NCBI GenBank assembly: GCA_003023725.1
Contig: PXYT01000037.1
Location: forward strand, 1 to 38,897
DNA: 38,897 nt
Source: Sulfobacillus benefaciens
GTDB lineage: Bacteria; Bacillota; Sulfobacillia; Sulfobacillales; Sulfobacillaceae
Reading direction: 5' to 3'
The notes under the pieces were generated by a model. The model saw nothing but the letters and a program-made list of their open reading frames with translations. It was not told the origin of the DNA and ran no database searches. Both the position numbers and the translations under genes were made by a program. Positions 18,209 to 30,735 of the stretch are shown here, piece by piece. Position 1 is the first letter of the stretch. Each line of letters opens with the position of its first letter.

Positions 18209-18509
18209 AAAGTCGAGCGAATTGCAATAATATTCCTTCGAATTTTAAAGAAAATTGCGGTGCCAGACAGTCGGAAAACTTTATGGCGTAAAGCTCAATA
18301 ATATGCCATCCGCTTCTCGATCCCGCTCTCTTCGTCGTTTAAATGAGAGAGGGTATTGGGAAAGAAATGGAACATGGAGCAAGCTTCAAGACTCTCTCCC
18401 GTCTTCTTCAGTGTTTTCAATGTTGTCACCGCGAGATACAAGAGGCGGAATATTTTGGGATCGGGTTGTGTTGCTCTCGCCAAACTCTGTGTCAACGACG
18501 CCATAAGTG
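18209..18509. other. Divergent intergenic region, no gene seen
   Basis: Short frames on both strands lack ribosome sites. The segment is AT-rich near 18225-18260 and otherwise holds nothing recognisable apart from the promoters at either end. Its length (about 450 bases between start codons) leaves room for a leader RNA or further protein sites. Confidence 0.3.
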
Positions 18510-18518
18510 TGCTACAAT
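18510..18518 (+). promoter_or_regulatory. Extended -10 promoter of the regulator-hutU unit
   Basis: TG-C-TACAAT is an extended -10 element 40 bases before the ATG of the regulator gene. The -35 region (TGTCAA, 17 bases upstream) is poor, which an extended -10 can tolerate. Confidence 0.4.
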
Positions 18519-18557
18519 TGTGCAGGAACAATAGATTCACAATATTGGAAAAGTTGA

Positions 18558-19454
18558 ATGGGGTCATTATTCCTTATGAAACCATTAGCCACCGTGGACG
18601 AATTCATGGATCGAATTCGGGATGCTTCACAGGAATCACCTGCTCACCAGCAAATTGGTGAGTTTTTGTCCGGTCATCTGCGTGAAGCCTCTTTTATGAG
18701 TGCAGGAGAACTGGCTAGAGAAGCCAACGTGAGTCAGGCGTCCGTGACCAGGTTCTGTCATACCATGGGTTTTCGGGGGTTCGGCGAATTTATTGCAGCT
18801 TTGCAGGATATGGTGCGGGAGGAATGGCGGGCACCAGAACGTATGGTTTATTTGCGTCCGAGCCTGCCTGCTGACGCCGATCCGTTGCTGGCCCAAGAAA
18901 TTTCCAACTTGGAAGGTCTGCCCGAGATTTTGGACAGTGAGGCGATGAATCGGCTGGTCGACTGCGTGAGTTCCGGTACACGTGTCATCCTGGCCGGGGC
19001 CCGTATTTCCGGAACTTTGATTCCTTATGCGGCGTATTGTCTAGGAAAGATCCGGGACGGGGTGGAGGTGGCGACTCCGGGTTCTGTGTTGTGGGATAAT
19101 TTGGCCTTGTCGCCGGGCGACAACACGGTCATCGTCGGTTGGGTATTCTCACGGTATGCCCGGACTCTTGTGAACTGGATGGCGGACGCCGCGGAAAACG
19201 GGAGTCGGGTCGCGGCCTTGACGGATCGCTGGATGTCGCCCGTGATGGCCTTTGCCGATCCGGTATTGGTCGTTCCGGTGGCAAATGCTTCACTGTTTGA
19301 TTCTTACGCCGCACCGATGTTTGTGGTGAATTATTTGGTGAGACAAGTGGCGCAACGCCTTCCCGGGGTTGCGCCGAGGCTGGAACAATTGGAAGCAAGA
19401 GACCAGCGTTTGGAAGTCTATTGGTCCAGGCGTTCCGGTAAACCCAAGGAGTGA
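18558..19454 (+). CDS. RpiR/MurR-family regulator of the hut locus
   Basis: The 298-residue protein combines an N-terminal RpiR-type helix-turn-helix (about residues 45-80: SAGELAREANVSQASVTRFC, then MGFRGFGEFIAAL) with a C-terminal SIS domain (about 125-260) that normally binds a sugar phosphate or other small effector; RVILAGARISGT and PGDNTVIVGWVFSRYA are SIS-like. ATG 18558 is used, although the ribosome site (GGAAAAG) is weak; an ATG six codons on is no better. It heads the rightward unit with the M20 amidase gene 8 bases on. The usual hut regulators are HutC (GntR) or HutP, so an RpiR protein here is unusual. Likely targets are the palindrome at 18179-18200 and its own promoter. Confidence 0.88.
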   Translation: MGSLFLMKPLATVDEFMDRIRDASQESPAHQQIGEFLSGHLREASFMSAGELAREANVSQASVTRFCHTMGFRGFGEFIAALQDMVREEWRAPERMVYLRPSLPADADPLLAQEISNLEGLPEILDSEAMNRLVDCVSSGTRVILAGARISGTLIPYAAYCLGKIRDGVEVATPGSVLWDNLALSPGDNTVIVGWVFSRYARTLVNWMADAAENGSRVAALTDRWMSPVMAFADPVLVVPVANASLFDSYAAPMFVVNYLVRQVAQRLPGVAPRLEQLEARDQRLEVYWSRRSGKPKE

Positions 19455-19462
19455 CAAACGAC

Positions 19463-20716
19463 ATGCACGAGATCTGGCGGTTTTCGCGGCTGAAGGAGCG
19501 TATTGATGCACTTGGGGAATTTGGCCGGGATCCTTTCGGTGGCATGACCCGTCCCTTCGGCAGTGCAGCCGAGCGAGAGGCCCGGCGATGGTTTTTACAA
19601 GAAGCTTCGAAAACGGGTCTTGAGATCTCGACCGACATGGCCGGAAATATTTGGGCTCTATATCCTGGGGACCGTCCGGAAATTTTAGCCATAGGTTCCC
19701 ATCTCGATACCGTACCCCACGGGGGAGCCTATGACGGGTCCTTGGGCGTGATATTGGGGTTGGAAAGTGTCCAAACTCTTCAAGAACAGGAATATCGACC
19801 GCTGCACACTTTAGGTGTGCTGGTCCTGGCCGGTGAGGAACCGAATCCGTTTCGGCTTTCCACACTAGGCAGCCGATTGCTCACGGGGGTCTTATCATTC
19901 GAAGAGATTGAGGCAGTCAAGGATGATCAGGGGCTTTTGTTGACGGAGGCCCTTGCGCTGGCGGATGCTCCCTCCGGGAACCATCATGAACTTGATGTTG
20001 CCCGGCTGCGCGGATTTATCGAACCGCATATTGAACAAGGGGCACGGCTCAAAGAACAGGGCTTGCCACTGGCTGTGGTTACCACGATTACCGGCATAGT
20101 GCGGCACTCCATCACCATTATTGGCGAACAAAACCATGCCGGGACCACCGCTCCCGAGCAACGGCGGGATGCGGTGCAAGCTTTTGCCGGGACGATGGAG
20201 CTGTTTCAAAGAATGGGACAAGAATTCTCCGGCGAGGTGCGGGGCACGGTGGGATATGTGAGTGTGTTTCCCAATGCGGTGAATATTGTGCCGTCCCGAG
20301 TCGAGTTCATCGTAGAGTGGCGATCACCCCAGGACTCTCTTTTGCACTCCGTCGCCGAAATGTTCTGGACTCAGGTTCAGACTCGCGTTCACGAGATGGG
20401 TCTAGAGCTGACACGAAAAGTGATCCTTTCCCAAAACCCGGTCGTTATGGATCCGCGTATGCAGGAATTATTGCATCAAGCCGTCGGAACCTATATTCCA
20501 CAGCACCCGGGTTTGGTGAGCTGGGCTGGTCATGATGCGGCTCACCTGGCCCAAAAGGTGCCGACCGGTATGTTGTTTATCCGCAGCAACGGCAAAAGCC
20601 ATTGTCCGGACGAAGACTGCGATTCAGACGATATGGCACTGGCGCTGAGAGTGTTGATAACAGCGCTAAGGAGATGGGATCAGAAGGAAAACCCAGGAGC
20701 CTCTCTAAGGAAGTGA
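19463..20716 (+). CDS. M20-family amidase (carbamoylase/allantoate amidohydrolase type), probable N-formylglutamate hydrolase
   Basis: The 417-residue enzyme belongs to the Zn-dependent hydantoinase/carbamoylase branch of peptidase family M20. The expected metal and catalytic residues are His80 and Asp91 in GSHLDTVPHGGAYDGSLGV, Glu125/Glu126 in LAGEEPNPF, His189 in EPHIEQG and His357 in WAGHDAAHLA; the dimer-interface His225 lies in GEQNHAGTT. Such enzymes cleave N-carbamoyl, and often N-formyl, L-amino acids. Between the regulator and a HutF-like deiminase, and with no classical HutG here, the likely job is hydrolysis of N-formylglutamate to glutamate and formate. ATG 19463 is 12 bases after AAGGAG; a GTG overlapping the regulator stop has no room for a ribosome site. 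Four bases separate it from the next gene. Confidence 0.87.
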   Translation: MHEIWRFSRLKERIDALGEFGRDPFGGMTRPFGSAAEREARRWFLQEASKTGLEISTDMAGNIWALYPGDRPEILAIGSHLDTVPHGGAYDGSLGVILGLESVQTLQEQEYRPLHTLGVLVLAGEEPNPFRLSTLGSRLLTGVLSFEEIEAVKDDQGLLLTEALALADAPSGNHHELDVARLRGFIEPHIEQGARLKEQGLPLAVVTTITGIVRHSITIIGEQNHAGTTAPEQRRDAVQAFAGTMELFQRMGQEFSGEVRGTVGYVSVFPNAVNIVPSRVEFIVEWRSPQDSLLHSVAEMFWTQVQTRVHEMGLELTRKVILSQNPVVMDPRMQELLHQAVGTYIPQHPGLVSWAGHDAAHLAQKVPTGMLFIRSNGKSHCPDEDCDSDDMALALRVLITALRRWDQKENPGASLRK

Positions 20717-20720
20717 AAGA

Positions 20721-22046
20721 ATGTTAACGGGATATCAACCCCAGTGGATGTGGGTCCATGGTCGGTTTGCCGAAAATTTCAGTCTGGTTGCCAGTGATGA
20801 CACGGGCCGCATCGTAGCTTTGGGACCAAAGGACGCGGTGAGGGCCCGTTACCCGCGGGCCACTTGGGAACCGTGGCCGAACAAGGTCTTGGTTCCCGGC
20901 ACGGTGAATACGCACAGTCATTCTTTTCAACACCTGCTTCGCGGCCTCGCCGTCGACCAACCTTTTCTGATTTGGCGGGACCAGGCGTTATATCGGCTGA
21001 CACCCTATTTGAACCCGAATGCGTTGTATTTGGGAGCTAAGCTAGCCTTTAGTGAAATGATTCTGCAGGGCATCACCACCGTTGTGGATTTTTTCTATTT
21101 GCATGACCATGGTCTGGATAACGATTTGGCAGTCATTCAGGCGGCACAAGAGGTCGGAATTCGCTTGATTTTGGCCCGGACCTTTTATGACTGGGAGGGT
21201 GCTCCTGAGGCATACCGGGAGACACCGGAAGAAGCGGTGAACCGGACACGAATTCTGGCCGGCCGTTATCGGAATAACCCCATGGTGCATATTCATCCGG
21301 CTCCGCACAGTGTCCATGGAGCATCCGACGCCATGATTGACGCGGCAGTCGGCTTGGCCCGTGATCTCAAGGCGCCCTATCACATGCATATCGCGGAAGA
21401 ACCGTTTGAAGTCGATGAACAGCGGAAGAAAACTGGTTTGAGTCCCGTAGAGCACTTGGCACAGCTCAATGCCCTGGACTCCTCGCTTATTGCTGTCCAC
21501 CTCACCTGGGCCAGTCCCCAAGATGCCGCCTTGTTGGGTCAAGCATCGGCCCGTCTGGCCTATTGCCCCTCCAGCAACATGTTTTTGGCTGACGGGGTGA
21601 CTCCCCTTAAGATGTTGCGAGACGCCGGCGTGCAGGTGGGACTGGGGACCGATGGCGGATGCAGCAACAATCGCGCCAGTGTGTACGAAGAAATGCGCAT
21701 GGCCGCCTTGTTGCAGAAGGTCGGCAGCCTGGACGCCACGATTCTGACTCATCAAGAAGTCTGGAACATGGGGACAGAAAACGGCGCGGATATGCTGCGA
21801 GTGGATGCGGGACGGTTAGAGGAAAATCGGCTGGCGGATTTCGTGGGTATTGATTTGACGCATGTCTCCTTGCTGCCATGGTCGCAGGAAACGCTGTTGG
21901 CCAATATTGTCTACGCTATGAGTCCTGCCGCGGTTCGAAATGTGGTGGTAGGGGGGCGGAAAATCGTTCAGGAAGGACAGCTTGAAACAGAAGATGTGCA
22001 AGCCTTGTCCAGAAATATTCAACAGTTGATCCGGAATTGGATGTAA
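20721..22046 (+). CDS. hutF: HutF-like formiminoglutamate deiminase (amidohydrolase superfamily)
   Basis: HutF converts N-formimino-L-glutamate to N-formylglutamate and ammonia. The 441-residue protein is a deaminase-type amidohydrolase. Metal ligands are His65/His67 in NTHSHSFQ and His223 in HMHIAEE, with His260 in AVHLTW and Asp311 in GTDGG. Gln70 and the IWRD segment with Arg86 match positions used by Pseudomonas HutF for substrate binding. However, the stretch PHSVHG stands where that enzyme has an HSLR motif, and GTDGGCSNN resembles methylthioadenosine/adenosylhomocysteine deaminases, so it is a divergent member. ATG 20721 has AAGGAAG upstream inside the M20 gene end. Position between the amidase and hutU decides the call; another imine or amine substrate is possible. 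Confidence 0.75.
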   Translation: MLTGYQPQWMWVHGRFAENFSLVASDDTGRIVALGPKDAVRARYPRATWEPWPNKVLVPGTVNTHSHSFQHLLRGLAVDQPFLIWRDQALYRLTPYLNPNALYLGAKLAFSEMILQGITTVVDFFYLHDHGLDNDLAVIQAAQEVGIRLILARTFYDWEGAPEAYRETPEEAVNRTRILAGRYRNNPMVHIHPAPHSVHGASDAMIDAAVGLARDLKAPYHMHIAEEPFEVDEQRKKTGLSPVEHLAQLNALDSSLIAVHLTWASPQDAALLGQASARLAYCPSSNMFLADGVTPLKMLRDAGVQVGLGTDGGCSNNRASVYEEMRMAALLQKVGSLDATILTHQEVWNMGTENGADMLRVDAGRLEENRLADFVGIDLTHVSLLPWSQETLLANIVYAMSPAAVRNVVVGGRKIVQEGQLETEDVQALSRNIQQLIRNWM

Positions 22047-22103
22047 TTTTGTCTGATCACCGACAAGGAGCTATCTAGCCCATAAACGTGGGGAGGGAAT
22101 ACT

Positions 22104-23798
22104 ATGACGAATTTCAGCAAACATGAAGGGATTCAAGCTCCCACCGGCCCCACCTTGCATTGCCAGGGATGGGGGCAGGAAGCGGCATTGCGGATGCTCA
22201 TGAACAACCTGGACGCCCGGGTTGGGGAAAACCCCCCGGAACGTATTGTTTATGGAGGACGGGGACGGGCCGCACGCTCTTGGCCGGCCTATGATAAGAT
22301 CGTGGAAAGCTTGCTCGGTCTGGAGAATGATGAAACATTGCTGATCCAGTCGGGGAAACCAGTCGGTATTTTTAAAACACAGAGCCAGGCTCCCCGGGTG
22401 TTGATTGCTAATGCCAATCTTGTGGGAAAGTGGGCGACTTTGGAAGAATTTGATCGGCTTGAGAAAAAAGGGTTAACCATGTTTGGGCAAATGACAGCGG
22501 GTTCTTGGATTTATATTGGCAGTCAAGGTGTGATTCAAGGGACATTCGAAACCCTGGCAGCCCTGGCGGCCAAGCATTTCGATGGGACCCTGCGGGGCAG
22601 GCTTTATGTGTCGGCCGGGTTAGGAGGGATGGGAGCGGCTCAGCCATTGGCTGCCAAGATGCTGGACGGGGTGGCGTTGATTGCGGAGGTTGACGATCAG
22701 CGGATACAGAGGCGGATGGACTCCGGCTATCTGGACGTGGCCTATGAGAGTATCGAGCGGGCGGTCAATGACGCCTTGGCGGCCAAAAGAGAACAGAAAT
22801 CCATTTCTCTTGGCGTTCATTGTCACGCTAATGAATTGTTGCAGTACTTGATTCAACGCCAAATCATTCCGGATGTGCTGTCAGATCAAACAGCCGCGCA
22901 CGATCCTTTGATTGGATACATCCCTGACGAGCTGAGTTCCGACGAAGCCCAGGTTTTGCGCCGTCAGGATGCCCAGAGCTATCTCCAGATGGCTAGACGA
23001 TCTATTGCTCAGCATGTGAGACACTTGCTGGCACTCAAACGAGCTGGGGCAGCGACCTTTGATTACGGCAACAATATCCGCCGTGAAGCTTTTGACCAGG
23101 GAGTGACAGATGCTTTTGAAATTCCCGGATATGTGCCCGCGTACATTCGGGATTTGTTTAACGCAGGCAAAGGACCGTTCCGTTGGGCGGTGCTGTCAGG
23201 AAAAGCCGAAGAGATTCATAAGCTGGATGCCTTGGCACTTGAGATGTTCGGGGACAATCCATTGCTCAGCCGGTGGCTTACCCTGGCTCAGAAATATATT
23301 CACTTTCAAGGGCTTCCGGCCCGTATTGCGTATATGGGGCTGGGAGAGCGGGACCGGTTCGCTTTAAAGGTTAATGAATGGGTAGCCCAAGGCAAGTTGT
23401 CGGCTCCTGTTGTCTTCGGCCGAGACCATCATGACACGGGTTCGGTGGCGTCGCCGTACCGGGAGACTGAAGCCATGCAAGATGGGTCCGATGCTATCGC
23501 TGACTGGCCCATTCTCAATGCCTTACTGAATACCGCCTCGGGTGCTCATTGGGTTTCGTTTCACCATGGTGGGGGAACCGGAATCGGTTATGCCTTGCAC
23601 GCAGGAGCGGTGGTGGTGGCCGATGGCAGCGAAGACAGTGCAGGGCGGCTGTCCCGTGTGTTCTTTAATGATCCGGGTATCGGAGTGATACGTCATGCGG
23701 ATGCGGGATACAGTCTGGCCAAAAAAACAATGGAAGAGCACAAAGACCGCATGCGGGCGCCCTTTGTGGGACCGGATACCAATATACCCATGGACTAG
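22104..23798 (+). CDS. hutU: Urocanate hydratase (urocanase)
   Basis: HutU adds water to urocanate with tightly bound NAD+ as electrophile and gives 4-imidazolone-5-propanoate, in the cytosol. The 564-residue product carries the urocanase hallmarks throughout: IVYGGRGRAARSWPAYDKI near the N-terminus, VSAGLGGMGAAQPLA in the NAD+ domain, TFDYGNNIR, the signature FQGLPARIAYMGLGERDRF near residues 400-418, FGRDHHDTGSVASPYRETEA with DGSDAIADWPILNALLNTA, and the HHGGGTGIGYALHAG loop. Length is usual. ATG 22104 follows GGAGGG. It is the last gene of the rightward unit, 57 bases after the deiminase gene. No T-rich terminator is evident after the stop. Confidence 0.97.
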   Translation: MTNFSKHEGIQAPTGPTLHCQGWGQEAALRMLMNNLDARVGENPPERIVYGGRGRAARSWPAYDKIVESLLGLENDETLLIQSGKPVGIFKTQSQAPRVLIANANLVGKWATLEEFDRLEKKGLTMFGQMTAGSWIYIGSQGVIQGTFETLAALAAKHFDGTLRGRLYVSAGLGGMGAAQPLAAKMLDGVALIAEVDDQRIQRRMDSGYLDVAYESIERAVNDALAAKREQKSISLGVHCHANELLQYLIQRQIIPDVLSDQTAAHDPLIGYIPDELSSDEAQVLRRQDAQSYLQMARRSIAQHVRHLLALKRAGAATFDYGNNIRREAFDQGVTDAFEIPGYVPAYIRDLFNAGKGPFRWAVLSGKAEEIHKLDALALEMFGDNPLLSRWLTLAQKYIHFQGLPARIAYMGLGERDRFALKVNEWVAQGKLSAPVVFGRDHHDTGSVASPYRETEAMQDGSDAIADWPILNALLNTASGAHWVSFHHGGGTGIGYALHAGAVVVADGSEDSAGRLSRVFFNDPGIGVIRHADAGYSLAKKTMEEHKDRMRAPFVGPDTNIPMD

Positions 23799-24350
23799 TC
23801 GTCCAAAGCTTGCTTACGGGACGGGCAAGTGTTGTGCCAATAAAGGTAGGATGACAGGGTTTTCAAAACGGGAAAACTTCTTGGTTTCTGAAGAATCCCG
23901 CCGCAATTTTGGGCCGTGTACTCTGTTTGAACACTGGTTTTGATTCCTCTGGCTCCGGAGACGGATCCGGGAATTCTGGTGTCGGAATGCCTTTCGGTAT
24001 CGTGATGCCAAATTGCCAGAATGAGAATGCCGCGGTAACCATGGGGTGCTCAGCTTTAAGGGGACATTCTCACGGCTGTAGCCGCGGCTTTAGGCCCTGT
24101 TTCGGTAGTATTTTCTTGGCCGCCGCCCCTCCAACGAAAGTTCGACCCGGTGGAGATTCAACGGGATTGGCGGGTTCCATCTAGTGGATGTTATGACATA
24201 AGCTAAAGGTAAGTCATAGTCATGATCATTAGATCGGCCGTGTCGCCGAGTTTCGGTGAATCAGTGCCGGTCCAGGAGCTTTCGATGTCACTAGGCTATG
24301 ATTTGGCCTACATGGACACATCTCTTTCTTCCTGAAAGAAGGTGAATAGG
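23799..24350. other. No supported gene; possibly degraded coding DNA
   Basis: Short frames on both strands lack ribosome sites. One rightward frame near 24075-24190 (TAVAAALGPVSVVFSWPPPL) has membrane-protein-like composition but is cut off by a stop just upstream and matches no family I can name. No histidase motif (such as the MIO triad ASGDLAPL) was seen, so this is not a broken hutH. The last 40 bases hold the ribosome site of the next small gene. Confidence 0.3.
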
Positions 24351-24485
24351 GTGATTATTCGCGAACAATTGAGTCCTGTTTTAGCCTTAGTCGCTGGCAT
24401 CCTAATACTCGTGCGGCCGCGGCTGCTCAATTATGTTGTGGCAATTTATCTCATCGTGGTCGGAATCATTGGTCTGGTTCATTGA
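24351..24485 (+). CDS. DUF3096-type small membrane protein
   Basis: The 44-residue product reads as one hydrophobic hairpin: an LSPVLALVAGILILV helix, a PRLLNY turn and a VVAIYLIVVGIIGLV helix. This is the pattern of the DUF3096 family, very short conserved membrane proteins of unknown function in which the Pro-Arg-Leu-Leu-Asn-Tyr turn is typical. GTG 24351 lies 7 bases after an AAGG and the stop is TGA at 24483-24485. It stands alone, followed after 56 bases by a strong hairpin. Promoter elements are not clear. Confidence 0.8.
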   Translation: MIIREQLSPVLALVAGILILVRPRLLNYVVAIYLIVVGIIGLVH

Positions 24486-24541
24486 CGCACTGCGCAAACC
24501 GGTTTCGCGAAGTAAATTGGGGAATCAGCCGACCTTTCCAG

Positions 24542-24580
24542 GACTAATCCCCCGAAACTCGATGTTCCGGGGGATTAGTC
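24542..24580 (+). terminator. 13-bp hairpin, probable terminator of the DUF3096 gene
   Basis: GACTAATCCCCCG (24542-24554) and CGGGGGATTAGTC (24568-24580) pair perfectly around a 13-base loop. The downstream tail is only moderately T-rich (ATATTTTCT begins about 10 bases on), so it may be a weak terminator or a stabilising 3' structure. Confidence 0.5.
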
Positions 24581-24833
24581 GTCCTTCGATATTTTCTCCA
24601 TTTCAGGAGATCGGTTTAGCTATGCACCATAAAGGGGAATCCGGATACCCCGTCTCAGTCTCTTTGGCCTGGGGAACGGAAGGCTACTGATTCTCACGGT
24701 ATTGTCTTATCGAATCGCGACTTTGGGAGAGTTTGGGCTCTCTTATCTAATGACTGATTCTTTAAAACAAAAGTTTTTTGCGCGATCTCATGACCCCTTA
24801 AGGCCCTTATCAGTTGGCCTCCTGTATGTTTTT
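24581..24833. other. No gene seen, AT-rich end
   Basis: The stretch holds short frames only and becomes very T-rich on the plus strand at 24828-24842, next to the stop of the leftward operon. A small AAAAC/GTTTT hairpin near 24768 and GAGAG/CTCTC repeats near 24728-24745 are weak. No clear terminator of the MoxR-VWA operon can be drawn. Confidence 0.3.
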
Positions 24834-26591
24834 TTATTTTTTAATAATGTATTGTTGCGGAATGCTGTGGCTTCTATTCTTCGCTTCCCGGAGTTTTCGA
24901 GCGTCACCATAGGGCCACAGGACCGCTCCAGCCAGGAGGGCGCATTCGGCTGCCCAGTCGTCCTTGGCTTTCTCCGCGAGCTTTTTCCATTGGTGACGAG
25001 TGATGAGCGTGTCCAGGTCCGCTGAAAATTCTTCGTTATCCCCAGGATCTAACGTCTTTAGGGCAGAAGTTTCTGGCATTGGTCCCAAATACAACACCGG
25101 GTTGTGATATCGTCCGACGTGCCTAACGGAGAAATATTGCGAGGCAACAAGGCTCTTGATCCAGGTGATTATTTGAGACATGGAGTAGACGCCACGAAAT
25201 CGGCCATAGTCGGGATCGTGTGCGTAGTCTTTGGATAAGATTTTCTCTTCGCGGCTGCCTGCCAGAATCCCGGCCAGGGTTTTGGCTCCCATTTTTTGGG
25301 GATGCCGTCTCAGGATGTCGGACAGACAGACGATCACTTCGTTAGGCGGGAAGGAGCGGAGAGTTAGTTGAAGAAGATTGATCAATTGCATGCCGTGATC
25401 AGCAAATTGGGAAGCTAGGTCTTCTAGACTCGGATGCGGCTCACATTCCGGTGCAAGTCGGTAGCCTTCGTGCGTGCTGCTGAGACGGGGATGTTGCCAC
25501 GCCTGAGCCCATCGATAGAGGTTTTCGTAGGAACGTTTCACATTTGGGATGTTGTGTATGGCAATGGGGACTGTCTCCCACTGTTTTTGAACGTGGCACC
25601 AAACTGCCTGTCCCTGGGTTTCCCATAATTGCTGCAACATGGTGCAGCCTTTTGAATTGAGGATGCCGGGGTCGGCCGCCAGAATAGCTTCATCCTCCCT
25701 GAAACGGTGCTCGTACCCGGGAACGTCGGATACGCGCGGAAGTTGCCTGGATTTCCATTTTCTCTTGTCATAACGGACAGGCTCAAGCGGCGTGTCGCAA
25801 AGTAAGAGCCGCAGTTGTTGTAAACGAAGAAAAGCCTGGTGGGATCTGGGTGTCCACAGAATGTCGGTGGATGTTTGAAGGGATAGTGCGGCAGCAACCA
25901 TTGACTCTACGCGGGTCCAGTCCGGGATTTGGTGAACGAAAGCCGACTGTCTGAACCAAATATCCGAGAGATTTCGGATAAGGTCTGCCGAATGTTTAAA
26001 AAAACCGTCGTCTTCAGGGTGCAGATTATCGGTATTGATAAGACGGCGGGGATTAAACGAAAAGGCATGCGACCACGAGCATTCAGGGCAGGTAAGTTGA
26101 ATGCTTCTCCAGAGAAACAAAAAGTCCGGGTGAAGTGTGTGGCACGCCATGGGAGATATCGGAATATCCACAGACCATGAGGAAATCAAATCATTTACCG
26201 CAGTCCATGCTTCTTCGTGGGATTTGTGGAAGCGATCCAAAAGAAATTGCCGGGTCTCTTCGTTGATGTCCCGGGAGGGCGGGATGAAGTCATTTTCGGT
26301 TAAAGAAGGTACAGGCTGATTGTCTTTGAGCTGCCGGACAATGCTTAGAGCCATTTGGTCGGTGATACGCAGGATCCATGATAGAGACGGGTCGCGGTAA
26401 AGTGCCGCAACATATTGCCAGACTTTTCGGGGGATGAGAATCTGCCCGCGAAACAAGATATTTCTTTTATGTGATAGTTTTACCGAATGCGTTTTCCATG
26501 CTGGCAAAGTCGGATCAATTTGCATAAGGCGTTCGCGGATCAGTTTTTCTATAACGGGGATATCCTGATTGGTCAGAGAGACATTTGTCAC
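24834..26591 (-). CDS. Unknown protein with RQC-like winged helix, third gene of a MoxR-VWA operon
   Basis: This 585-residue protein is not recognised over most of its length. Residues about 436-503 look like an RQC-type winged helix, the DNA-binding domain that follows the helicase core in RecQ. They comprise TLAGILAGSREEKIL, a YAHDPDYGRFRGV stretch and MSQIITWIKSLVASQYFSV, and end with NPVLYLGP. There is no helicase motif, Walker A or DExH. A CPEC (168-171) with a preceding Cys-His (150-151) could be part of a metal site, but only three or four ligands are visible. No signal peptide or membrane helix is seen, so it should be cytosolic. Its ATG overlaps the VWA gene stop by 4 bases, so all three genes are translationally coupled and likely act as one complex. 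Confidence 0.75.
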   Translation of the reverse strand: MTNVSLTNQDIPVIEKLIRERLMQIDPTLPAWKTHSVKLSHKRNILFRGQILIPRKVWQYVAALYRDPSLSWILRITDQMALSIVRQLKDNQPVPSLTENDFIPPSRDINEETRQFLLDRFHKSHEEAWTAVNDLISSWSVDIPISPMACHTLHPDFLFLWRSIQLTCPECSWSHAFSFNPRRLINTDNLHPEDDGFFKHSADLIRNLSDIWFRQSAFVHQIPDWTRVESMVAAALSLQTSTDILWTPRSHQAFLRLQQLRLLLCDTPLEPVRYDKRKWKSRQLPRVSDVPGYEHRFREDEAILAADPGILNSKGCTMLQQLWETQGQAVWCHVQKQWETVPIAIHNIPNVKRSYENLYRWAQAWQHPRLSSTHEGYRLAPECEPHPSLEDLASQFADHGMQLINLLQLTLRSFPPNEVIVCLSDILRRHPQKMGAKTLAGILAGSREEKILSKDYAHDPDYGRFRGVYSMSQIITWIKSLVASQYFSVRHVGRYHNPVLYLGPMPETSALKTLDPGDNEEFSADLDTLITRHQWKKLAEKAKDDWAAECALLAGAVLWPYGDARKLREAKNRSHSIPQQYIIKK

Positions 26592-28051
26592 AATATCACC
26601 ATCCCGGGAAGTTTCTGAAGAAAGTCGACTAACTGATTAAATCTTGCGATCTCGACAAATCGGGCATACGGTTTATAGCGGGCGACAGACGAATCTCCCA
26701 GATTCCACTGACTGCGCGGTTCGGGATTAAGCCAATAAATGGCATGCACCCTACGGCTGATGGCACGGAAACGATCTACTTCGGGCGGGTAGCGGTTACT
26801 GCGAGCATCTCCTAATACGAATACGATGGGGTTGTCATCAAAAACTGAGGCATATACCCTCGTCATTTGTTTCCACAGCGCACCGTAGTCTGAGAAGCCT
26901 TGGTAGTCTATGGAGGCATGATTAAGAACTTGGTAGATGAGTTGATGATAGCCCTGGCCGGCAAAGTGCCGTGTGATCTCGTCGGCGGAAGAGACAAACG
27001 CAAAGTGTCGAATTCTTCCCTCGAAGATTTGGTGGAGTCCATAGAGAAAGGCCAGGAAAAGAGAAGACACAGATTGCACTGACCCTGAAATATCGCATAA
27101 GGTCACAATCCGGCGAATGCGCCTAGGCCTCGCCGTCTTAATAAGAATGGCCGGCTCTCCGAATGTGGCCAGACTACGCTTAATTGTCTGGCGGTAATTG
27201 AATACCAAATGTTTTCGCCTTATCTCATGCCCGCGGGAAAAATCTCCTTGCAGATGTTTGGCCAGACTATGGATGGCGGCCGTTAAAGTGTCGCGGTAGG
27301 TGTCCGGCAAGGGGGCTAAGGGTGCATTCCATTCTTGAGTCGATAAGTGCAGAATGTCGGACGACGATAAGTGTTCAGGTTGGTGAAAGTAACCGTTGTC
27401 GCGATTGCGCCGGACGGACCTAAAAGACGAGGGGGACAGTCGCTCCACTACTTCGATCAGACGCCGATAACGCTGCAACACTTCTTCGACATTTGGCCAG
27501 TTTTCTGGGTTAATGATTTGTTGCCGGGCTAAAGCAGCAAGATGCCGCACGATCCAGGTTTTGTCCTGTTGTGTTAACGGATGACGGAAAACAAGAATGG
27601 CGCTGTTTTGATAATGGCCCTCCAAAAATGCTTCAAATGAGGCCAGTTGGCGGGGACCATTGGCTAACCGCTGCAAAAGGGCGTGTTTCCATGATTTCGA
27701 TAACGCTTTTTGGGGAGACGGTGTTGCCGAGTGGAAGATAGCAGGTTCCAGTGTCATGGCCCATTGCCCCGTTGCTTCTTCCGCTCGGGTGTCGTTACGT
27801 GGTGAGAAGTACTCCCAGAATTGTTTGCGAAAGAGGTCGTCTTGAGCAGATGACTTAACCAAGCACGGGTGAATCGTAAGATAGAACTCCAAAAGCGAAT
27901 GCGGCTTAAGAATGGCGCAAGCCATCTCGGCTGTAACCAAATCGTCCGTGGTCACAATGAAGTGGTGGCGGCGCAGGGTGTTGGCAAACCCTGTCAAAGA
28001 CTGGTTAAAATCGGCAGCTGTTAATGCTGCCGAACTAATGGAAGAATTCAT
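26588..28051 (-). CDS. CoxE-type VWA-domain protein
   Basis: The C-terminal third of this 487-residue protein is a von Willebrand A domain of the CoxE type. The MIDAS is Asp320-x-Ser322-x-Ser324 in LCDISGSV; the later metal-site positions are around FSDYG (387-389) and Asp415 in LGDARSN. The end, HAIYWLNPEPRSQWNLGDSS, is a typical CoxE finish. Residues 1-300 are mostly helical and family-specific. CoxE-like proteins work as adaptors of MoxR ATPases, bringing a metal-dependent grip on the target. The gene start overlaps the MoxR stop by 4 bases and its own stop overlaps the next start by 4. No CO-dehydrogenase genes are in the window, so a Cox-like role is not supported. Confidence 0.9.
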   Translation of the reverse strand: MNSSISSAALTAADFNQSLTGFANTLRRHHFIVTTDDLVTAEMACAILKPHSLLEFYLTIHPCLVKSSAQDDLFRKQFWEYFSPRNDTRAEEATGQWAMTLEPAIFHSATPSPQKALSKSWKHALLQRLANGPRQLASFEAFLEGHYQNSAILVFRHPLTQQDKTWIVRHLAALARQQIINPENWPNVEEVLQRYRRLIEVVERLSPSSFRSVRRNRDNGYFHQPEHLSSSDILHLSTQEWNAPLAPLPDTYRDTLTAAIHSLAKHLQGDFSRGHEIRRKHLVFNYRQTIKRSLATFGEPAILIKTARPRRIRRIVTLCDISGSVQSVSSLFLAFLYGLHQIFEGRIRHFAFVSSADEITRHFAGQGYHQLIYQVLNHASIDYQGFSDYGALWKQMTRVYASVFDDNPIVFVLGDARSNRYPPEVDRFRAISRRVHAIYWLNPEPRSQWNLGDSSVARYKPYARFVEIARFNQLVDFLQKLPGMVIL

Positions 28052-28965
28052 GGGCGGGATTTTCTTTCTGCTATTTGGCGTCCCAGCGCCATATCCCGTG
28101 GGTGTTTGGCGAAAATGGGCAATGTCTCGTCAACGTTGTCAGGGGTGAGCGGACGTGGGTTTTCTCCGGTAAGACATAGCGCGGTGGCCAGTTCAACGGC
28201 TTCGGCTATAGACGGGAGATGATGAGGTTTGGCATGTCGGTAGGAGGCAAGAAATTCCGCGACATCCTTAGCAAAGGATTCGCTGGCCTGCGGAACTTGA
28301 GACTGAATAATGGCGGCTTCGCGCTGACGATCCGGCAGCTCAATCCAGACATAAAGACATCGGCGGCGTAAGGCATCGGAAAGCTCCCGACTGCGGTTGG
28401 AAGTCAGGATAACTAGGGGTTTTTGAACAGCCTGGATGGTTCCAAATTCCGGAATGGAGAGTGAGAATTCGGATAAGGGCTCGAGTAACAAGGCCTCGAA
28501 TTCTCTGTCGGCCCGGTCGATCTCGTCAATCAGCAAAACCCGCGGCTTATGATCCGCCGGATCCAACGCCTCAAGTACCGGGCGGCGCGTCAGAAACGGC
28601 CTACCCCACAATGGCAATAATTCCTCCAACTCGGCAACCGCCTGATCGAAACTGCGCTGGCCAAGGATTGCCGCCAGAGGTTCACGTAATGCGTTGATAT
28701 AGAGTAATTGTTTAGCATAATGATATTCATAGAGTGCCTGCGATGCGTCGATCCCCTCATAACATTGCAGACGTATAAACGATGCTTCTAAGATGTGGGC
28801 CGCCGTTCTGGCTAAAAATGTCTTGCCGGCCCCAGGCGGCCCCTCGACCAATAACGGTTTTTCTAAGGATTGAGCCAGGGACAGCGCGATGGTAATTTCC
28901 GGCGTGGGGATATAGTGCCGGGAAACCAGTGATTCCTTCCACGCGTCCGGAGTGAGGATTGTCAT
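28048..28965 (-). CDS. MoxR-family AAA+ ATPase (CoxD-like)
   Basis: The 305-residue ATPase has Walker A GPPGAGKT at residues 42-49, Walker B VLLIDEIDRAD from 143, sensor 1 in ILTSNRSREL near 187 and an arginine-finger run RRR near 200, followed by a small helical lid. The CYEGIDASQALYEY stretch is typical of the MoxR/CoxD branch. MoxR ATPases form hexamers and, with a VWA partner, remodel or metallate target proteins. ATG 28965 follows GGTGGGAG. It is the first gene of a three-gene unit with 4-base overlaps. The target of this unit is unknown and the third gene has no recognised function. Confidence 0.93.
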   Translation of the reverse strand: MTILTPDAWKESLVSRHYIPTPEITIALSLAQSLEKPLLVEGPPGAGKTFLARTAAHILEASFIRLQCYEGIDASQALYEYHYAKQLLYINALREPLAAILGQRSFDQAVAELEELLPLWGRPFLTRRPVLEALDPADHKPRVLLIDEIDRADREFEALLLEPLSEFSLSIPEFGTIQAVQKPLVILTSNRSRELSDALRRRCLYVWIELPDRQREAAIIQSQVPQASESFAKDVAEFLASYRHAKPHHLPSIAEAVELATALCLTGENPRPLTPDNVDETLPIFAKHPRDMALGRQIAERKSRP

Positions 28966-29060
28966 AAACTCCCACCTTTTTCTTAAAACAGGATTTTTGA
29001 GATTTCGTGGTTATGGTGATGTAAGAGAACCAGGCCACAAACGCTTATTTGAATGCCTCC

Positions 29061-29069
29061 ATTGTAGCA
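29061..29069 (-). promoter_or_regulatory. Possible extended -10 promoter of the MoxR operon
   Basis: On the leftward strand TG-C-TACAAT (29068-29061) is an extended -10 about 95 bases before the moxR ATG. No good -35 precedes it. The same TGCTACAAT string is found before the hut regulator gene. Confidence 0.35.
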
Positions 29070-29457
29070 AGCATATGTTGACGAACACTGGCAATTGTTG
29101 TGACAGGGGGACCCCGCAATCATGTTTTAGGGCTGGAAACACCGGGATATGATGAGCGGTACGCTGAGATCTGAACACGATGATGACGGCCCCCGGATAT
29201 CCTCGGGGTCTCTTGTCATAAAAAGAAACCCGAACCAATGAACCAAGCAACGGGTCCGAGTCTCAAGGGTGGGCAACCAGGGGGCTGCTCTCCTCATTTG
29301 AGAGAGCCTCTGTCAGGCATCTTGTTGGGAATCGATCACACTTCGCTCTTTAAAAATTTTACGCCTATTTAGTTTATTAAAGAGGGGTGTGGCAGATTCG
29401 TTTTTTCTTCGTAGCAGCCGTCACTACCAAAGTTAGCGGCTATTTTTGTCTGGTCTT
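29070..29457. other. Intergenic region with several inverted repeats, no gene
   Basis: No credible gene is present. Structures seen are CCCC...GGGG arms around a GGATATCC core near 29190-29206, a GCTCTC/GAGAGC hairpin at 29287-29307, and a perfect 8-bp repeat CTCTTTAA (29346-29353) / TTAAAGAG (29377-29384) with a 23-base spacer. Close to the methyltransferase stop an AGCCG/CGGCT pair is followed by ATTTTTG (29432-29447), a weak rightward terminator. What these do is unknown; a structured RNA is one possibility. Confidence 0.35.
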
Positions 29458-30309
29458 TTAATCTGATCGTTCGCTTTGAGTTTTCCTTGCCCAAAAGTAG
29501 CCGCTGCTATTGGACAGTTTCAGATGACCATATTGGTGAAAGTGGGGGCGGACCACGTTTTCCATGGTTCGGAGCAATTGCTCTTTGAGTGCAGACTGAC
29601 GGTACCGTGCGGGGATTCCCTGCCAGCAAAAACCCGAGCCATAATACGATAAATAGGGGCCGACACCGGGGAATAGAAGTCCTGCCGGCTCTTCCACGAT
29701 ATGAACGGGTACGGGGAAAAATTGAGCGCCGTTTGCCAGAGAAAAACGATCGATTCCGCTAGGAGGCTCGTATGGAATTCCCAGGGTGCGGACCACTTGC
29801 TCATGATACACCCTCATTTCGCGGTAGCTGTTACTGCCATTGGTGCCGGTCAATAAAAGACCGCCGGGACGCACCAGTGCCCAAGCTTTTGACAGAACGT
29901 CACTGATATCAGAAACGTGGTATAGCATGAAGTGAAGTCCAACCCAGTCGAATGACTCGGGAGACTCATCCGGCGCTTCGGCACGGCCGTGCCGGACAGA
30001 TGCCTTGGGGTCGCCTTGCAGACGGTTCTCAAGCTGTTTAACCATAGCGGGCGATTGGTCCACGGCTTCGTAAAGACAGTGCCGACCGACAAGTTGCCTA
30101 ATCCGCTGGTACCAGGCTCCGGTTCCGGCTCCGATGTCGAGAATTTTTCGCGGAACCGATAGCGTCAGGGCGTGACGGGTCATGATATCGAAAACATTTT
30201 CGGTTTGAAGACTGTAGCGTTCATGGCTCAGGATCCGTGTGGCAAGGCCATCTCGGGTTTTGTAGGAGTCGTGCACGAATTTGGGATCCAAAAATTGATC
30301 GGTGTCCAT
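29458..30309 (-). CDS. Class I SAM-dependent methyltransferase
   Basis: The 283-residue protein has the Rossmann methyltransferase core: motif I ILDIGAGTGAWYQRI with the Gly-rich SAM loop, an acidic end of strand 2 (YEAVDQSP), a motif III/IV region in FDWVGLHFMLYHVSDISDVL and LVRPGGLLLTGTNG as the next strand-turn. Residues from about 170 onward vary, so the substrate cannot be read; small-molecule methylation is more likely than rRNA or protein. The longer upstream frame is not used: ATG 30309 lies six to seven bases after AAAGGAGAG. It is a single gene without an evident partner. Confidence 0.9.
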   Translation of the reverse strand: MDTDQFLDPKFVHDSYKTRDGLATRILSHERYSLQTENVFDIMTRHALTLSVPRKILDIGAGTGAWYQRIRQLVGRHCLYEAVDQSPAMVKQLENRLQGDPKASVRHGRAEAPDESPESFDWVGLHFMLYHVSDISDVLSKAWALVRPGGLLLTGTNGSNSYREMRVYHEQVVRTLGIPYEPPSGIDRFSLANGAQFFPVPVHIVEEPAGLLFPGVGPYLSYYGSGFCWQGIPARYRQSALKEQLLRTMENVVRPHFHQYGHLKLSNSSGYFWARKTQSERSD

Positions 30310-30735
30310 TGTTGCTCTCCTTTGATTGATAGGTATCCGCCTATCATGGTGGATCAGCTGGAGGATTTTGTTCCTGTGCCCAGTATAGAACGGAATGTGA
30401 AAATGACGCAAATCGGCGGATGATTCGCATTGACTGTGGCTCGCCTCGGGCTTTCCCAGACTTATGGCGAGGCTTCGACATGACGATAAAGCCGGAGCGT
30501 CCAAAGCGTCCGGCAACGGTGGCCTCAAGTCGAATGCCTATTGGAGCGGGGTCCTATTTCCGTCGTGCTGTCGGAAAACGTCTGGCTCTTTTCGTGAACC
30601 TGATCCACAATGGGAATAACGGACGCCGGAATTTTCTGGGGAAAGCTTAAGGGGATTGGCGAAAGAAAGAATTTGTTTTAACCGGTCGTTAAGAGAGGAA
30701 TGCATGAGCAAGGAAGGAAAGCAAGGAGGAAAGCC
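30310..30735. other. Divergent intergenic region, no supported gene
   Basis: A 76-codon frame (30420-30650) has no ribosome site and no recognised sequence. GC-rich repeats such as GGAGCGTCC/GCGTCC near 30496-30513 are visible. The region separates the methyltransferase gene (leftward) from the zinc-ribbon gene (rightward) and should hold both promoters; none is convincing by eye. Confidence 0.3.

What the first reader, a model, noticed from the sequence alone, without database searches (positions are those of the whole stretch)
24834..28965. Three-gene MoxR-VWA operon with an unrecognised RQC-like third protein
Sequence shows a MoxR ATPase, a CoxE-type VWA protein and a 585-residue protein joined by two 4-base ATGA overlaps, so they are made together. 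MoxR-VWA pairs are known chaperones that work on one target or cofactor step. The third gene has no helicase core yet carries a segment (about residues 436-503) that resembles the RQC winged helix of RecQ, plus a CPEC motif. Inference: a nucleic-acid- or nucleoprotein-remodelling system in which the ATPase and VWA act on, or are directed by, the RQC-like protein. It could be a defence or repair module. No CO-dehydrogenase or methanol-oxidation genes are near to give it a known role.
Basis: partly seen in the sequence, partly recalled or inferred. Interest (0 to 1): 0.7.

Follow-up and report, generated by a model that had tools for sequence, protein, structure and literature searches.

The report
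MoxR-VWA operon with helicase-free RQC protein
An acquired three-gene bacterial cassette couples a MoxR/VWA protein-remodelling motor to an otherwise orphan protein that carries the DNA-docking (RQC) domain of RecQ helicases without the helicase, a combination not described in the papers and databases I could search and found in only two genomes.

Summary
Three genes (MoxR ATPase, CoxE-type VWA, 585-aa protein) lie head to tail with two 4-base overlaps, one ATGA and one GTGA. The RQC segment is real. It passes Pfam's RQC cut-off at residues 426-504. A profile I built from 36 RecQ RQC domains scores the window protein 25.8 bits and its 31%-identical homologue 20.7, against a best of 6.0 in 2000 shuffles. 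Residues 1-400 match nothing.

The same three genes recur once, in another genus, with different neighbours: MoxR 66% identical, VWA 48%, third protein 31%. No other genome among 154 of the class or a sample of 299 of the phylum has them. In congener G006 the site is empty, so the trio looks like an acquired cassette. The genome has two further MoxR-VWA pairs, both beside molybdenum CO/aldehyde-dehydrogenase genes. The trio MoxR forms its own deep clade, away from them and from MadB.

Best reading: a MoxR-VWA ternary remodelling system whose third component is an RQC winged-helix adaptor or client. It works like the published ternary systems but shows none of their defining third components. 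DNA binding and any defence role are inferred. It is a new variant of a known kind.

The parts
28048..28965 (-). MoxR-type AAA+ ATPase, 305 aa (P0003), first gene of the operon
   Evidence: AAA_5 51 bits, MadB_ATPase 236 bits but below its 475 cut-off; Walker A GPPGAGKT 42-49, Walker B DEIDRA 147
26588..28051 (-). CoxE-type VWA protein, 487 aa (P0002), second gene
   Evidence: VWA_CoxE 96 bits at residues 272-460; MIDAS DISGS 320-324
24834..26591 (-). 585-aa orphan protein with a C-terminal RQC winged-helix segment (P0001), third gene, GTG start
   Evidence: no match outside the RQC segment
25080..25316 (-). RQC domain, residues 426-504 of the third protein
   Evidence: PF09382 24.4 bits, 26.7 bits in the genome search; RecQ-RQC profile 25.8 bits against a shuffle maximum of 6.0
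26079..26090 (-). CPEC motif, residues 168-171, with conserved Cys150 upstream; possible partial zinc knuckle
   Evidence: invariant in the homologue
27080..27094 (-). MIDAS DISGS (residues 320-324) of the VWA domain
   Evidence: DLSGS in the homologue
28819..28842 (-). Walker A GPPGAGKT (residues 42-49) of MoxR
28048..28051 (-). ATGA stop/start overlap MoxR-VWA
26588..26591 (-). GTGA stop/start overlap VWA-third
28969..28977 (-). ribosome-binding site AGGTGGGAG upstream of MoxR ATG (read by eye)
   Evidence: sequence
24488..29486 (.). about 5 kb segment absent from the same site of congener G006 (about 330 unrelated bases there); outer limits of the acquired cassette

Best explanation
The three genes make one dedicated ATP-driven remodelling system. 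Shown: a MoxR AAA+ ATPase with intact Walker motifs, a CoxE-type VWA partner with the DxSxS part of a MIDAS, and a third protein whose only recognisable part is a helicase-free RQC winged helix, encoded as an overlapping operon that stays together between two genera while its surroundings change. Inferred: the MoxR hexamer engages the VWA protein, and the VWA MIDAS grips the third protein or a complex it recruits. ATP hydrolysis then changes the third protein's conformation or dislodges its bound partner. The RQC winged helix most likely docks the machine on DNA or a nucleoprotein, as it does in RecQ, and the fast-evolving rest of the protein recognises the actual target. The role is accessory (stress, repair or genetic conflict), because the cassette is rare and acquired.
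For: RQC match in two sequences only 31% identical, at the same place, against Pfam, NCBIfam RQC-minor-1 and my own RecQ-derived profile with a shuffle control. A joint RQC profile reaches solved RecQ (4tmu, E 8e-5). The RQC segment is among the best conserved parts (42% against 30% overall). The trio is conserved in order in G010/MAG TL1-3.bin40 with different flanks. Empty site in G006. MoxR-VWA pairs are known to remodel a dedicated target through the MIDAS (PMC9976466, PMC13036017).
Against: No biochemical data. RQC/winged-helix folds can be protein-protein modules. The RQC score is modest (24-26 bits), and the homologue falls just under the Pfam cut-off as a whole protein (21.4). Structure models are below pLDDT 50 and the fold search gave nothing significant. 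The joint PDB match rests partly on RQC-minor-1 sequences. Only two genomes have the trio, so no association with a target or phenotype can be read from occurrence.
Confidence: 0.5

Rival explanations
1. A metabolic maturation module like NorQD, CbbQO or CoxDE: MoxR-VWA inserts a cofactor into, or activates, an enzyme encoded elsewhere, and the third protein is a specificity or scaffold subunit whose winged helix is a protein-protein module.
For: Characterised pairs such as NorQD act this way; the VWA has no fused effector; its relatives in the class are two-gene pairs, several beside genes that look like CO dehydrogenase and electron-transfer proteins (by eye), and those of two plasmid hits sit beside methanol dehydrogenase or acyl-CoA dehydrogenases.
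Against: No candidate enzyme shared by the two copies' neighbourhoods; the genome's two cox operons already have their own MoxR-VWA pairs; the trio MoxR is a separate deep clade; a metabolic scaffold has no obvious need of an RQC domain.
Confidence: 0.3
2. An anti-phage or anti-plasmid conflict system of the MoxR-vWA ternary type, with the RQC protein as sensor of foreign or abnormal DNA and MoxR-VWA as its release motor.
For: Same three-part logic as the published ternary conflict systems (PMC7159879); patchy occurrence and an empty site in a congener; fastest change in the third, sensor-like gene.
Against: No effector domain recognised on any of the three proteins; no PADLOC model above noise for the third protein; no neighbouring defence genes recognised; none in plasmids, phages or viral contigs.
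Confidence: 0.2

Closest known systems
MoxR-vWA-centric ternary conflict systems (VMAP, iSTAND, FtsH, beta-propeller; eLife 2020, PMC7159879)
   Same: MoxR plus VWA plus a conserved, fast-evolving third component; patchy occurrence; the iSTAND-class VWAs also have a CoxE-type N-terminal domain
   Different: Third component carries an RQC domain and is recognised as none of the four; no fused effector domain on the VWA; no peptidase, TIR or EAD modules recognised; found here in two members of one Bacillota family; RecQ is not mentioned in that paper
MadB/MadC (NCBIfam NF047784/NF047783) and CoxD/CoxE MoxR-VWA pairs
   Same: Nearest scored families for the MoxR (236 bits) and VWA (118 bits)
   Different: Far below the equivalog cut-offs (475 and 600); separate clade; a third gene is present; no enzyme beside it
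RQC-minor-1 and RQC-minor-2 families (NF041107, NF041108)
   Same: RQC winged helix without a helicase; RQC-minor-2 also has a CxxC region followed by a C-terminal RQC
   Different: Scores far below cut-off; homology limited to the RQC segment; true RQC-minor-2 genes sit beside 5-oxoprolinase-type genes, not MoxR-VWA
RecQ helicase RQC domain
   Same: Same winged-helix profile, DNA-binding in RecQ, WRN and BLM
   Different: No helicase core, no HRDC

Membership tests
RQC domain superfamily | match to the RQC profile above the curated cut-off | tested here: met
   24.4 bits against 23; homologue 24.5 in the segment search, 21.4 as whole protein; own RecQ profile 25.8 and 20.7 against shuffle maximum 6.0
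RecQ helicase | DEAD/DEAH helicase core before the RQC | tested here: not met
   no helicase match in Pfam or NCBIfam
RQC-minor-1 / RQC-minor-2 | score above 115 / 300 bits and full-length homology | tested here: not met
   25.6 and at most 15.7 bits; no N-terminal similarity to RQC-minor-2
MoxR-VWA chaperone pair | MoxR AAA+ gene next to a VWA gene with a MIDAS | tested here: met
   Walker A/B and DISGS present; adjacent in both genomes; the third MIDAS position is Ser387 instead of Thr by eye
MadBC | equivalog scores above 475 and 600 bits | tested here: not met
   235.7 and 118.5 bits
CoxDE maturation pair | encoded with coxLMS-type molybdenum enzyme genes | tested here: not met
   none in the window or around G010's copy; canonical ones are on other contigs
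MoxR-vWA ternary conflict system (published classes) | third component VMAP, iSTAND, FtsH or beta-propeller | tested here: inconclusive
   no such domain found by Pfam/NCBIfam; VMAP and iSTAND models may be absent from these libraries
MoxR-vWA ternary conflict system (published classes) | effector domain fused to the VWA or third component | tested here: not met
   none recognised; the VWA protein ends about 27 residues after the VWA match
Anti-phage defence system | protection against phage | not testable with these tools
   no strain work possible

The most novel reading that the evidence does not exclude
A fifth class of MoxR-vWA ternary conflict system, in which an RQC winged-helix protein senses unusual DNA (forks, junctions or single-strand gaps of invading elements) and is switched by the MoxR-VWA motor.
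Probability: 0.2. Interest if true: 0.75.

Novelty: new variant of a known kind. Interest (0 to 1): 0.5.

Why it matters
Characterised MoxR-VWA pairs remodel enzymes or have been proposed to drive conflict systems. A pair genetically locked to a DNA-docking RQC module would extend this motor family to nucleoprotein remodelling. It would also give the helicase-free RQC proteins, currently named only as DNA-binding families, a first mechanistic partner. The trio is small (4.1 kb), self-contained and easy to test.

Tried and rejected
AlphaFold2 on the third protein, full length and residues 395-585, with two-row alignments: mean pLDDT 46.7 and 46.4; Foldseek of the second gave nothing significant (RecQ 4tmu rank 4, E 2.7), so I do not use it. 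PDB search with the two-row C-terminal profile: best hit a UDP-GlcNAc epimerase at E 0.004, taken as chance. RQC-minor-2 as parent family: only 42 RQC columns, P 0.08, no N-terminal homology, different neighbours. PADLOC hits LmuB and MTase_II at 12-13 bits: noise. Plasmid, phage and viral-contig searches for the third protein: none. Other class members of the VWA subfamily: two-gene pairs without an RQC gene. The RQC-minor-1 gene 2.2 kb from coxE on C70 is on the opposite strand with another gene between, not a second trio. Literature: no open-access paper holds MoxR, vWA and RQC together; none names RQC-minor. The Rfam and promoter/terminator scans gave nothing useful.

Full report
Check of the observation. 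The three ORFs lie on the minus strand as stated: MoxR 28048-28965 (305 aa), VWA 26588-28051 (487 aa), third protein 24834-26591 (585 aa, GTG start). A strong ribosome-binding site (AGGTGGGAG) precedes MoxR (read by eye). No CO-dehydrogenase or methanol-oxidation genes are in the window, which is the complete 38,897-base contig C87 of a 4.56-Mb draft genome.

Is the RQC segment real? Pfam RQC matches residues 426-504 at 24.4 bits, E 2.7e-5, above the curated 23; the NCBIfam model RQC_minor_1 matches the same stretch at E 7.6e-6. The only homologue, 578 aa and 31% identical, matches RQC at the same place (24.5 bits in the genome search; 21.4 as a whole protein) and RQC_minor_1. I built a profile from 36 RQC regions taken from RecQ helicases of the phylum: it gives 25.8 and 20.7 bits to the two proteins, and at most 6.0 bits to 2000 shuffles of them. 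A profile of both proteins plus six RQC-minor-1 proteins reaches RecQ of C. sakazakii in the PDB at E 8e-5; that match leans on the RQC-minor-1 rows, since the two-row profile alone does not find RecQ. The segment is 42% identical between the two homologues, against 30% for the whole protein. So the RQC resemblance is supported; there is no helicase core. CPEC (168-171) and Cys150 are invariant; a fourth metal ligand (His154) is not, so a zinc site is possible but not shown.

MoxR and VWA. MoxR has GPPGAGKT, DEIDRA and the SNRSR/RRR region; the VWA has the MIDAS start DISGS and, by alignment with other VWAs by eye, Ser387 and Asp415 at the other two positions. The best family models are MadB (236 bits) and MadC (118 bits), both far below their equivalog cut-offs. 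A maximum-likelihood tree of 25 MoxR proteins puts the two trio MoxRs on their own branch (100/100, length 2.4), apart from the cox-linked MoxRs of the same genome, MadB-like plasmid proteins and relatives in the class; the tree warns of long branches, so only the separateness is used.

Distribution. Among 154 genomes of the class, and 299 drawn from the phylum, only G000 and G010 (MAG TL1-3.bin40) have the third protein; a pattern scan of about 85,000 species genomes found only the latter, with limited reach because it needs exact peptides. Plasmids, phages and viral contigs have none. In G010 the order MoxR-VWA-third is the same, with identities of 66, 48 and 31%, but the neighbours are ectoine-type genes and malic enzyme, not the histidine-degradation genes of the window. 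In congener G006 the flanks (window 18503-24487 and 29491-30329) are joined with only about 330 unrelated bases between: the cassette is absent there. Other congeners are uninformative (contig ends or changed synteny). Together this points to an acquired unit of three genes. Relatives of this VWA type elsewhere in the class are two-gene pairs without an RQC gene.

Context in the genome. Two other MoxR-VWA pairs exist, both beside molybdenum-enzyme (coxL/M-type) genes, on C70 and C71. The trio is therefore not the genome's CO-dehydrogenase maturation pair. A stand-alone RQC-minor-1 gene (219.9 bits, cut-off 115) sits on C70; no RecQ was found in the order by the RQC model.

How it most likely works. 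From characterised pairs, the VWA plugs the MoxR ring through a finger and uses its MIDAS to bind the target, and ATP hydrolysis strains the target or linker (NorQD: PMC9976466, PMC13036017). By inference the third protein is that target or an adaptor to it, docked on nucleic acid by its RQC winged helix. Published MoxR-vWA ternary systems have the same three-part layout (PMC7159879), and the iSTAND third component is described as rapidly evolving (PMC12839542). Their third components are VMAP, iSTAND, FtsH or beta-propeller proteins, and many carry effectors; none is recognised here. I therefore class it as working like these systems without filing it as a member, at 0.5 confidence for the remodelling model with nucleic-acid docking, 0.3 for enzyme maturation and 0.2 for defence. 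The defence reading overlaps mechanistically with the first.

Limits. Two sequences are too few for a good structure model, for covariation or for selection tests; predicted models were unusable.

Noticed in passing
L011 10927-11520 (G000:C70): Stand-alone RQC-minor-1 gene (true NCBIfam member) 2.2 kb from a canonical cox operon and beside an ectoine cluster; similar genes occur in a few other genomes of the order, which has no RecQ detectable by the RQC model.
   Followed up: partly
L028, L073, L074: RQC-minor-2 proteins of Bacilli show a C-x-H...C-x-x-C motif before the C-terminal RQC and a conserved neighbourhood with 5-oxoprolinase-type (PxpABC-like) genes.
   Followed up: partly
L088, L092, L097 and others: MadB/MadC-like MoxR-VWA pairs in other families of the class lie beside genes that look like CooC/CooS-type CO dehydrogenase or heterodisulfide-reductase-like proteins (judged by eye).
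   Followed up: no
window 18558-23798: Histidine-degradation and amidohydrolase cluster (urocanase, imidazolonepropionase-type, M20 peptidase, SIS-type regulator), conserved across the genus.
   Followed up: partly
window 24542-24580: Near-perfect 17-base inverted repeat between the third gene and the small ORF 24342-24485; possibly a terminator.
   Followed up: no
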